Shown piece by piece: positions 3 through 15,746 of a stretch of DNA of 43,914 nt. The stretch lies in the IMG/VR virus record IMGVR_UViG_3300033978_000436, positions 1-43,914 of that record, one strand, 5' to 3'. The notes beneath the pieces are model-generated. The model saw only the letters and a program-made list of their open reading frames with translations, did not search any database and was not told where the DNA came from. Position 1 is the stretch's first letter, and every line of letters begins with the position of its first letter. Position numbers and translations under genes: made by a program. Source of the stretch: a virus.

Positions 3-2975
<2,973 letters not shown>

Positions 2976-2977
2976 AC

Positions 2978-3895
2978 ATGGATAACGAGCAATTAAATAG
3001 CGAGCCGGTCGTAATGGTGCCGTATGACGGCATGATAATGGCCGAAACAGCCGGCGGCTGCGGTATTTGCCCAGAAGGCCCTCCCGGTCCCGTTGGCCCT
3101 GCTGGCCCTGTTGGGCCGTCCGGACCCGCAGGCCCAAAAGGCGGTACCGGCACAAAAGGTAACACGGGCTCTAAGGGCGATAAAGGTGCCACCGGGCCAA
3201 CAGGGCCAACCGGTAACACTGGCGCTACTGGCTCACCCGGACGCACAGGCCCGACGGGACCAACGGGTCCAGCTGGCGCGGCAGGCGCAGTTGGCGCTAC
3301 CGGCGCTAACGGACAAAAAGGTCAAACAGGTGTAACCGGACCAAAAGGCGATAAAGGCCAAACTGGCCCCACCGGTCCCGGTGGTTCACGCGGGCCTACC
3401 GGTCCAACAGGGCCAAAAGGCGATAGAGGTCCGTCTGGGCCCACAGGACCAAACGGCCGCACAGGCCCGACTGGTCCTACAGGCCCGTCAGGCGGAAAAG
3501 GCGACAAGGGGGCAACTGGTGTAACGGGTGTGACTGGCGCGACCGGCCCGTCAGGCGCGCAGGGTATACAAGGTGTACAGGGTATATCGGGTGTACAGGG
3601 ACCAAGCGGCCCAACCGGCAAGACCGGCGGGAAAGGCGATAAAGGAGTTACAGGCGCATCAGGCCCTAGCGGCCCGAGCGGCGCTAGAGGCCCTACCGGG
3701 CCAGCAGGGCCTTCTGGGCCTTCTGGGCTCTCTATAACTGGTCCTACGGGCCCTTGCGGCAATACCGGCCAAACAGGGCCTACGGGGCCTACAGGGCCGG
3801 CTGGCGATTTAACGCTAGCGGGACTTATTGCGGCTATCAATACAAACGCAACAGTGCGCGCGGCTATTCGTGCCGCTGTTATTGCGTCTGTATGA
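2978..3895 (+). CDS. Collagen-like fibre protein
   Basis: A 305-residue protein. The first 30 residues are non-repetitive and include GGCGICPEG, with two cysteines that could crosslink chains. About 240 residues of Gly-X-Y follow, with a Gln/Ile-rich stretch ([15 protein letters not shown]) and a break near [12 protein letters not shown]. The C-terminus, [17 protein letters not shown], closely matches the end of the upstream collagen protein, suggesting a common cap that drives trimer formation. It follows that gene at 2 bases, so the two are surely co-transcribed and may form homo- or heterotrimers in the same virion structure (inference). Confidence 0.85.
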
Positions 3896-14540: not shown

Positions 14541-15005
14541 ATGCAAACTTTTCTACCGCTGCCCAGCTTTCGGGCTTCGGCGGCTTGCTTGGACAATAAA
14601 CGACTTGGAAAACAACGGGTCGAGTGCAAACAAATTCTTTTGTGTCTGGGCGTTCCAATTGGTGAACACACGCCCGGTAAATCCAGCTGGAGAAATCATC
14701 CGGCTGTGCGCATGTGGGCTGGATCTGAAATAGCCCTGATCGCATACAGCGCCGTAATTTGCAGAGAATGGCGCCGCCGCGGGTTTCGCGATACACTGCA
14801 CGCGCAGTTCATGGAAGCATATGATCGCGAACGGGGCGGACTAATAGTTCCGTATCCGCGATGGTTTCGGAGTCGGCGCTTTCATTCCAGTCACCGTAGT
14901 AATTTGCTGCGCAAAGACTATAATCACTACTCGCGTTTCGGTTGGATGGAGTCAATTGACTTGCCATACTATTGGCCCGTTAGTGACGTAGCAGTTAATG
15001 TTTAA
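14541..15005 (+). CDS. Pyrimidine dimer DNA glycosylase-family protein (MSMEG_6728-like)
   Basis: 154 residues; AAAGGAG ribosome site. MQTFLPLPSFRASAACLDNK, RLGKQRVECKQIL, WRNHPAVRMWAGSEIALIAY and CREWRRRGFRDT match, in order, the pattern of the bacterial MSMEG_6728 family, annotated as pyrimidine dimer glycosylase/endonuclease V-like. These enzymes act on UV photoproducts by base excision with a lyase step, as in T4 DenV; the Thr-2/N-terminal amine chemistry of DenV is not clearly conserved, so activity is inferred from family only. Followed 5 bases later by tRNA-Thr. Confidence 0.75.
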   Translation: MQTFLPLPSFRASAACLDNKRLGKQRVECKQILLCLGVPIGEHTPGKSSWRNHPAVRMWAGSEIALIAYSAVICREWRRRGFRDTLHAQFMEAYDRERGGLIVPYPRWFRSRRFHSSHRSNLLRKDYNHYSRFGWMESIDLPYYWPVSDVAVNV

Positions 15006-15010
15006 TATAT

Positions 15011-15083
15011 GCCGGTGTAGCTCAGTTGGTAGAGCCACTGATTTGTAATCAGTAGGTCGTCGGTTCGAGTCCGACCGCCGGCT
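15011..15083 (+). tRNA. tRNA-Thr (anticodon UGU)
   Basis: 73 bases with a full cloverleaf: acceptor GCCGGTG/CGCCGGC, D stem GCTC/GAGC, anticodon stem ACTGA/TCAGT around loop TTTGTAA, T arm GTCGG-TTCGAGT-CCGAC, discriminator T and no encoded CCA. The D stem has the usual elongator-type C11:G24 pair, unlike the initiator-like tRNA at 10283. It may serve ACA codons, which are common in the Thr-rich collagen-like genes. Confidence 0.93.
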
Positions 15084-15085
15084 TT

Positions 15086-15276
15086 ATGGCAGATACGCGG
15101 GGCGCGCGTTTAACGCTTGAAGTGATAAACGTATCGGGCTGATCCCCTGAGCGGACGAAGCTTGCGGACGGGGAAGAAATGCAGAGTTGATCGCTGCTGT
15201 TGTGTACCCGTATTAAATCCTGAAATGACAGGAAAACAAAAATTTATCACAGCCGGTTCGACTCCGGCCTGCCATT
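15086..15276 (+). ncRNA. Structured RNA with tRNA-like ends (tmRNA-like topology or intron-bearing tRNA)
   Basis: The ends form a tRNA-like half-molecule: acceptor ATGGCAG (15086-15092) with CTGCCAT (15269-15275), a 4-bp D stem ACGC/GCGT with a short GGGGCGC loop, and a canonical T arm GCCGG-TTCGACT-CCGGC (15252-15268). Instead of an anticodon arm a 7-bp stem TGATAAA/TTTATCA (15123-15129 with 15243-15249) encloses about 110 bases that fold further: TCCCC/GGGGA (15143-15147, 15170-15174) and TCCTG/CAGGA near 15217-15232. This is the tmRNA layout, but far shorter than usual and without a clear tag ending Ala-Ala-stop. A tRNA interrupted by a short unusual intron is the alternative. Shape is seen; class is not proven. 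Confidence 0.6.
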
Positions 15277-15282
15277 ATTAAT

Positions 15283-15291
15283 TGGTATAAT
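15283..15291 (+). promoter_or_regulatory. Extended -10 promoter for the GNAT gene
   Basis: TGGTATAAT (15283-15291) is a perfect TATAAT with the TGn extension, 27 bases before the ATG at 15318, directly after the structured RNA. There is no clear -35 at 16-18 bases, which extended -10 promoters do not require. It probably starts the operon GNAT, zinc-ribbon protein, alpha-CTD and onward. Confidence 0.5.
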
Positions 15292-15317
15292 CCATAGTTA
15301 GTCACGGAGGACTTGCT

Positions 15318-15746
15318 ATGGATTTTCATATCAGCCTTAAAGATATCAATACATTAGCGCCAACTGAGATTGACGAGATATACAACCGGTTGTCTGTGCC
15401 GGGTCGCAATATGCGCGACGAAATCTCTAAGCGTTATATCGAACGCTGGCCGGGTGAGCACGAAGCCATGACGATGGCGCTAATCCACCAAAACGGTTTA
15501 TTTGTTGCGTGGGTTGGTTCTCGACCTTTTAAAGAAAAATTCAAAGGCAAGATGCTCGACGTTCAAACAGTCGAGTGTTTTACAGACCCAGAACTACGGC
15601 GCCGCGGTATTGCGCAGCTTGGTTTACAAGCGCTTATAAGTGCCGGCGTAATTAATAGAGACAAACCCGTGTCTGTGTACGAAAAATCTGTAGTTAAAAT
15701 GGCGGAGCGCTGCGGATGCAAGTTCGTGGTGTTGTGTATTTCATGA
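15318..15746 (+). CDS. GNAT-family N-acetyltransferase
   Basis: 142 residues; CGGAGG ribosome site. VQTVECFTDPELRRRGIAQL near residues 77-98 is the GNAT core: strand beta4 followed by the R/Q-x-x-G-x-G/A acetyl-CoA pyrophosphate loop (RRRGIAQ), then helix LGLQALISAG and VYEKSVVKMAERCGCK, the usual end motif. Substrate unknown; phage GNAT enzymes may acetylate host proteins, RNA or small molecules. The stop overlaps the next start (ATGA at 15743). Confidence 0.75.
   Translation: MDFHISLKDINTLAPTEIDEIYNRLSVPGRNMRDEISKRYIERWPGEHEAMTMALIHQNGLFVAWVGSRPFKEKFKGKMLDVQTVECFTDPELRRRGIAQLGLQALISAGVINRDKPVSVYEKSVVKMAERCGCKFVVLCIS

What the first reader, a model, noticed from the sequence alone, without database searches (positions are those of the whole stretch)
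15086..15276. Unclassified RNA with tRNA-like ends and tmRNA topology next to tRNA-Thr
A full acceptor stem, D stem and T arm enclose about 150 bases and a long 7-bp stem placed where tmRNA has P2, plus internal hairpins. It is much shorter than known tmRNAs and I see no tag ORF with an Ala-Ala-stop end (one candidate frame from the GCA at 15181 ends VVYPY then stop, which is atypical). It may be a reduced phage tmRNA, a tRNA with a short unusual intron, or a new tRNA-like RNA.
Basis: partly seen in the sequence, partly recalled or inferred. Interest (0 to 1): 0.75.

Follow-up and report, generated by a model that had tools for sequence, protein, structure and literature searches.

The report
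New tRNA-capped phage RNA beside tRNA-Thr
A group of large bacterial viruses carries, just after a transfer-RNA gene, a roughly 190-base RNA that is closed by transfer-RNA-like ends and has a conserved structured core but no conserved coding frame; it matches no catalogued RNA family and is not the viruses' own tmRNA, and what it does is unknown.

Summary
Window 15086-15276 holds a 7-bp acceptor-type stem, a 5-bp D-type stem, an 8-bp (not 7-bp) P2-like stem next to a canonical T arm, and about 113 nt inside P2. It is a conserved RNA. Homologues lie in IMG/VR contigs of related phages (three lineages plus one decayed copy), 2-4 nt after a tRNA-Thr(UGU) 3' end, next to two unrelated tRNA-Thr types. 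Across three lineages 14 of 41 pairs change on both sides (0-2 in slid controls), including 4 of 7 acceptor and 4 of 8 P2 pairs. No Rfam family matches beyond the T arm. It is not shown to be a tmRNA: no G3-U70 (alanine) pair in any lineage, no tmRNA D-loop motif, no tag frame kept in all lineages. Twelve related phage contigs, one of which also carries this RNA, hold a separate canonical tmRNA. Outside the T arm it resembles neither those tmRNAs nor T4 RNA C/D above chance. Best reading: a new, small family of tRNA-operon-borne noncoding RNA with a tRNA-like cap, probably matured like a tRNA and acting as a tRNA/tmRNA mimic or protein-binding RNA. Function is inferred, not shown.

The parts
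15011..15083 (+). tRNA-Thr (UGU); the RNA starts 2 nt after its discriminator base and is presumably co-transcribed
   Evidence: ARAGORN, Rfam RF00005 72.4 bits; a tRNA-Thr(UGU) precedes the RNA in all homologues
15086..15276 (+). tRNA-capped noncoding RNA, whole predicted mature body (15276 = discriminator position; no CCA encoded)
   Evidence: covariance model built from window + L045 + L014 + L015; homologues; covariation
15086..15092 (+). acceptor-type stem, 5' strand (pairs with 15269-15275); third pair is G-C, not G-U
   Evidence: 4 of 7 pairs compensatory, 100% paired
15095..15109 (+). D-type hairpin ACGCG-GGGCG-CGCGU
   Evidence: 100% paired, one compensatory A-U/G-C pair
15110..15121 (+). 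conserved linker TTAACGCTTGAA; GCUU may pair with AAGC (15158-15161) across the P2 5' strand (invariant, so untested)
   Evidence: alignment; helix list
15122..15129 (+). P2-like stem, 5' strand (8 bp with 15243-15250)
   Evidence: 4 of 8 pairs compensatory, 100% paired; top of an unbiased helix search
15130..15161 (+). most conserved internal block, CGgATAtgGGyTGATCaCCTGArCGGACGAAGC
   Evidence: alignment; pattern scan
15168..15172 (+). variable stem, 5' strand (pairs with 15207-15211)
   Evidence: 100% paired, 2 of 5 pairs compensatory
15181..15197 (+). hairpin GCAG-AGTTGATCG-CTGC inside the variable stem; its loop repeats the TGATC of the conserved block.
   Evidence: sequence; TGATC also in the matching stretch of L014 and L015
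15207..15211 (+). variable stem, 3' strand
15213..15216 (+). invariant TTAA; a stop in one frame of the window, but the frame is not kept across lineages
15218..15233 (+). hairpin TCCTG-AAATGA-CAGGA
   Evidence: 80% of cells paired, 2 compensatory pairs
15243..15250 (+). P2-like stem, 3' strand
15252..15268 (+). T arm, loop TTCGACT (invariant in the intact copies)
   Evidence: 100% paired, one compensatory pair
15269..15275 (+). acceptor-type stem, 3' strand

Best explanation
It is a structured noncoding RNA that sits in a phage tRNA transcription unit. Shown by comparison: a tRNA-like cap (acceptor stem, D-type stem, T arm) in which the anticodon arm is replaced by an 8-bp helix leading to a conserved internal domain of 110-126 nt, kept as RNA structure and not as a coding frame. 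Inferred from its place 2-4 nt after a tRNA-Thr(UGU) 3' end and from its tRNA-like ends: it is cut out of the tRNA-Thr precursor by RNase P at the 5' end and by tRNA 3' processing at the other, gets its CCA added, and accumulates as a stable RNA. Inferred and weaker: it acts as a tRNA/tmRNA mimic that binds a host factor handling tRNA-shaped RNA (a ribosome-rescue factor, EF-Tu or a tRNA enzyme) or presents the internal domain to a protein, and does not tag proteins. My estimates: real, structured, noncoding and not a trans-translating tmRNA, about 0.8; the mimic/decoy mechanism in particular, about 0.3.
For: Homologues with the full structure in L045 (78% identity over 189 nt by BLAST), L014 and L015; an identical copy in contig 3300034019_001535. 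96.9% of cells paired, 14 of 41 pairs changed on both sides, against 0-2 in slid controls and none of 500 shuffles reaching that measure; the unbiased helix list puts P2 and the acceptor first. L014 and L015 differ at one base in the RNA while flanking DNA is 91% (downstream) and 70% (upstream) identical. A tRNA-Thr(UGU) 3' end lies 2-4 nt upstream in every copy, of two unrelated sequence types. No coding frame kept in all lineages. A separate canonical tmRNA in 12 related contigs, including G013 which carries this RNA.
Against: No transcript, processing or aminoacylation data. Only three independent lineages, plus one decayed copy (L018), so the pairs rest on few events, and the structure was derived from the same sequences it was counted on. 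Most related phages with the same tRNA-Thr site lack it, so it is dispensable. The binding partner is a guess. The discriminator position varies (T, T, G), which speaks against charging by one synthetase through that base. No SmpB gene was found in 17 related records, so any SmpB partner would be the host's.
Confidence: 0.6

Rival explanations
1. A highly reduced tmRNA that still tags proteins, with a short atypical tag, for example ADEACGRGRNAELIAAVVYPY-stop from the GCG in the conserved block.
For: tmRNA topology (acceptor + P2 + T arm). The conserved block reads GCG GAC GAA (Ala-Asp-Glu) in the window and L014; in the window and L045 that frame ends at the conserved TTAA.
Against: In L014 and L015 the same frame has no stop inside the P2-enclosed domain; the frames share no C-terminal sequence (VVYPY, ADVAS, none). 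No G3-U70. No tmRNA match beyond a T arm in Rfam at E up to 10. A phage with this RNA already has a canonical tmRNA.
Confidence: 0.06
2. A tag-less tmRNA relative that acts on ribosome rescue: it binds host SmpB and either frees ribosomes without tagging or inhibits the host's trans-translation.
For: Precedent: mycobacteriophage DS6A encodes little more than the tmRNA tRNA-like domain, and a similar molecule, chargeable or not, strongly inhibited tmRNA, perhaps by titrating SmpB (PMC4131195, PMC11915505). P2 joins the T arm as in tmRNA.
Against: The D region is a 5-bp hairpin and lacks the TATCGAC / TTTCGAC motif of the phages' own tmRNAs; outside the T arm no similarity to them above shuffled sequence. 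The related phages keep a canonical tmRNA, so blocking rescue would be odd.
Confidence: 0.18
3. A decaying remnant of a tRNA or tmRNA gene with no function.
For: Patchy distribution; L018 is clearly decayed, with the middle missing and the T loop changed.
Against: Many compensatory changes; near-identity between L014 and L015 while flanks diverge; L018 shows what decay looks like.
Confidence: 0.06
4. A tRNA gene interrupted by a short intron, spliced to a tRNA of about 75 nt.
For: Complete acceptor stem, D-type stem and T arm.
Against: Twelve nt between D stem and P2 and one nt between P2 and T stem do not leave a normal anticodon arm; no intron family matches in Rfam.
Confidence: 0.02
5. A mobile or attachment-site element tied to the tRNA-Thr 3' end, whose RNA structure serves its mobility.
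For: Relatives L006 and L009 have the identical tRNA-Thr with nothing of the kind after it; in L045 the tRNA-Thr 3' end is duplicated around an inserted gene.
Against: No integrase was identified next to it, and I saw no repeats bounding the RNA; mobility alone does not explain a covarying tRNA-type cap.
Confidence: 0.06

Closest known systems
Phage T4 RNA C (species 1) and RNA D (species 2)
   Same: Phage RNAs of 139 and 119 nt encoded among or next to tRNA genes, of unknown role. RNA C ends in a T arm followed by a sequence that can pair with its 5' end, an imperfect acceptor-like stem.
   Different: Different internal layout in RNA C by predicted fold (a long arm and a hairpin, no D stem or enclosing P2); no sequence similarity above shuffles outside the T arm; the covariance model finds neither.
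Mycobacteriophage DS6A tRNA-like-domain-only tmRNA
   Same: Phage-encoded tRNA-like RNA without a tag; a similar molecule inhibits tmRNA (PMC4131195, PMC11915505).
   Different: DS6A's is described as little more than the tRNA-like domain; this RNA encloses 110-126 further nt and lacks the G3-U70 pair and the tmRNA D motif. The DS6A record could not be fetched, so no direct comparison was made.
tmRNA (RF00023), including the canonical tmRNAs of related phages
   Same: Acceptor stem, T arm, and a P2 helix placed directly before the T arm.
   Different: About half the length; D-type hairpin; no G3-U70; no tag frame kept across lineages; a separate gene from the phage tmRNA.
GOLLD / ROOL RNAs
   Same: Structured noncoding RNAs also discussed together with phages and tRNA arrays.
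   Different: No Rfam match to either. That they are several hundred nt long is my own knowledge.

Membership tests
tmRNA (RF00023 and relatives) | 7-bp acceptor stem and T arm of tRNA type | tested here: met
tmRNA (RF00023 and relatives) | long P2 helix directly before the T arm | tested here: met
   8 bp, 4 compensatory pairs
tmRNA (RF00023 and relatives) | G3-U70 alanine identity pair | tested here: not met
   read by hand from the alignment: G-C (window), A-U (L045), G-C (L014, L015); the canonical phage tmRNAs read G3-U70 in the sequences
tmRNA (RF00023 and relatives) | D region with the UCGAC-type motif instead of a tRNA D stem | tested here: not met
   5-bp hairpin ACGCG-GGGCG-CGCGU instead; motif visible in the phages' own tmRNAs
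tmRNA (RF00023 and relatives) | tag reading frame conserved among relatives | tested here: not met
tmRNA (RF00023 and relatives) | covariance-model match over the gene | tested here: not met
   no match over the cut-off; at E up to 10 none for the window or L045, and only 17 nt of the T arm for L014
tmRNA (RF00023 and relatives) | alanylation, SmpB binding, trans-translation | not testable with these tools
   needs biochemistry
tRNA, with or without intron | anticodon arm between D and T arms | tested here: not met
   P2 and 113 nt in its place; RF00005 matches only the neighbouring tRNA-Thr and the tRNA-Met
T4 RNA C / RNA D | sequence homology outside the T arm | tested here: not met
   model searches
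T4 RNA C / RNA D | RNA encoded in or next to a phage tRNA gene or cluster | tested here: met
T4 RNA C / RNA D | accumulates as a stable RNA in infected cells | not testable with these tools
   no transcript data here

The most novel reading that the evidence does not exclude
A new class of phage RNA that wears a tRNA cap on a dedicated internal domain to act on the host's ribosome-rescue or tRNA machinery without coding for anything, deployed alongside the phage's own canonical tmRNA.
Probability: 0.25. Interest if true: 0.8.

Novelty: new variant of a known kind. Interest (0 to 1): 0.6.

Why it matters
Phage T4 RNA C and D are still described as of unknown function. This is another phage RNA beside a tRNA gene, unrelated by sequence at the sensitivity used, with a tRNA-like closure, which hints that tRNA capping is a recurring way for phages to build and stabilise noncoding RNAs. 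Phages that carry both a canonical tmRNA and this RNA would let one ask whether phages tune ribosome rescue with RNA mimics.

Tried and rejected
Rfam at its curated scores and at E up to 10: nothing beyond T arms. ARAGORN at lowered threshold: only partial tRNA-like stretches. Pattern GCTTGANGNNNTANACGNAT was too loose, its hits mostly chance. Pattern hits in bacterial genomes: none shows the RNA's structure around the matched motif, judged chance. A 217-nt model hit in G017 reads as two neighbouring tRNAs. T4 RNA C/D homology, suggested by short shared motifs, failed shuffle tests. DS6A records not held. A kissing interaction between the two TGATC loops and a GCUU/AAGC pseudoknot are possible but the pairs do not vary, so they are untested.

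Full report
Observation. The window is one virus record of 43,914 bases. At 15086-15276 (+) the stems described are present: acceptor 7 bp, D-type 5 bp, P2-like 8 bp and T arm with the TTCGACT loop, two bases after tRNA-Thr(UGU). A descriptor for acceptor + P2 + T arm finds only this place in the window and nothing in 2.6 Mb of random sequence of like dinucleotide make-up. Folding energy is only modestly better than shuffles, so homologues decide.

Homologues. Loci fetched through the neighbouring UV-endonuclease-like protein (Pyr_excise) include L045, L014 and L015 with the RNA after tRNA-Thr, an identical copy in contig 3300034019_001535, and a decayed copy in L018. Four patterns from different parts of the RNA recover only these contigs, or these plus a chance hit; a fifth, GATCACCTGANCGGACGA, misses the window's own sequence, which differs there, and adds chance hits. 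So in IMG/VR the family seems small: three lineages and one remnant, at the sensitivity of exact patterns. A covariance model (R1) run over 48 whole records found no further full-length member; weaker hits fall on tRNAs, tmRNAs or short stretches.

Structure. Across the lineages 96.9% of cells are paired; 14 of 41 pairs change on both sides, against 0-2 when partners are slid and none of 500 shuffles reaching that number. Acceptor and P2 give 4 compensatory pairs each, the variable stem and the TCCTG hairpin 2 each, D and T stems 1 each. An unbiased list of shared helices puts P2 and the acceptor first. The most conserved stretch is the block after P2; the hairpin loop at 15181-15197 repeats its TGATC.

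Not a trans-translating tmRNA, as far as sequence can tell. Reading the alignment by hand, the third acceptor pair is G-C, A-U and G-C, never G-U. The D region is a hairpin. No frame is kept: the window and L045 have a frame from the conserved block to TTAA, L014 and L015 do not. Rfam gives no tmRNA match beyond the T arm. Of 47 related records 12 hold a tmRNA over the family's cut-off. ARAGORN, run on eight of these, calls five with tags: four end in ALAA (GAPLALAA, GAYAPALAA, GASAPALAA, GAHAPALAA) and one reads ADYVSSWRFCSGPRCLVNRPVGEAT, not of that type; the other three, G013's among them, have the tmRNA by Rfam only. G013 carries both that tmRNA and this RNA. Outside the T arm, local alignment scores between this RNA and those tmRNAs lie within shuffled values. 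No SmpB gene was found in 17 related records, some of which may be fragments.

Context. The RNA follows a tRNA-Thr(UGU) 3' end by 2-4 nt in every copy; in L045 a small inserted gene separates the full tRNA from a duplicated tRNA-Thr 3' end, and the RNA follows the duplicate. The tRNA-Thr is of one type in the window and L045 and of an unrelated type in L014 and L015. The window's tRNA-Thr is identical to that of L006 and L009, which lack the RNA. No terminator-like site was found in 14900-15400, and the one promoter-like site is on the other strand and no more than chance, which fits co-transcription without proving it.

Known relatives. T4 RNA C and D are phage RNAs at a tRNA cluster whose roles are described as unknown (PMC3014915, PMC9697503, PMC12685909). 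RNA C also closes with a T arm and an imperfect acceptor-like stem, but neither is similar to this RNA above chance. Mycobacteriophage DS6A encodes little more than a tmRNA tRNA-like domain, and a similar molecule inhibits tmRNA (PMC4131195, PMC11915505); this is the best precedent for a mimic.

Judgement. Existence and noncoding, structured nature: well supported, though on few lineages. tRNA-like maturation: inferred. Mimic or decoy function: a reasoned guess. Novelty: a new RNA family not in Rfam, of a kind (phage RNAs with tRNA-like parts) already known.

Noticed in passing
L045:3516-3790: The 3' end of tRNA-Thr is duplicated on both sides of a small inserted ORF, as if a gene had inserted at the tRNA 3' end.
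   Followed up: partly
L014:3527-3964: An ORF with several CxxC-type motifs, HNH-like by eye but without a Pfam match, lies just upstream of the tRNA-Thr/RNA pair in L014 and is absent at that place in L015, whose tRNA and RNA are nearly identical.
   Followed up: partly
related phage contigs, e.g. L207, L209-L212: Phages of about 200 kb carry canonical tmRNA genes with tags such as GAPLALAA and GAYAPALAA; ARAGORN reads one (L209) with an atypical 25-residue tag and misses three that Rfam finds.
   Followed up: partly
L213:409-672 and relatives: T4 RNA C and D have no Rfam match; sequences matching RNA C lie between tRNA genes in Karamvirus, Winklervirus and Gelderlandvirus phages, and an RNA D-like stretch follows tRNA-Met in a phage listed under Vequintavirinae.
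   Followed up: partly
window 264-3895: Two tail-fibre-like proteins in a row, the first with collagen repeats by Pfam, both matching collagen-like tail families of PHROGs.
   Followed up: no
window 15318-15746: Weak match to the GNAT acetyltransferase family, below its cut-off, directly downstream of the RNA; by eye, similar reading frames follow tRNA-Thr in many relatives.
   Followed up: no
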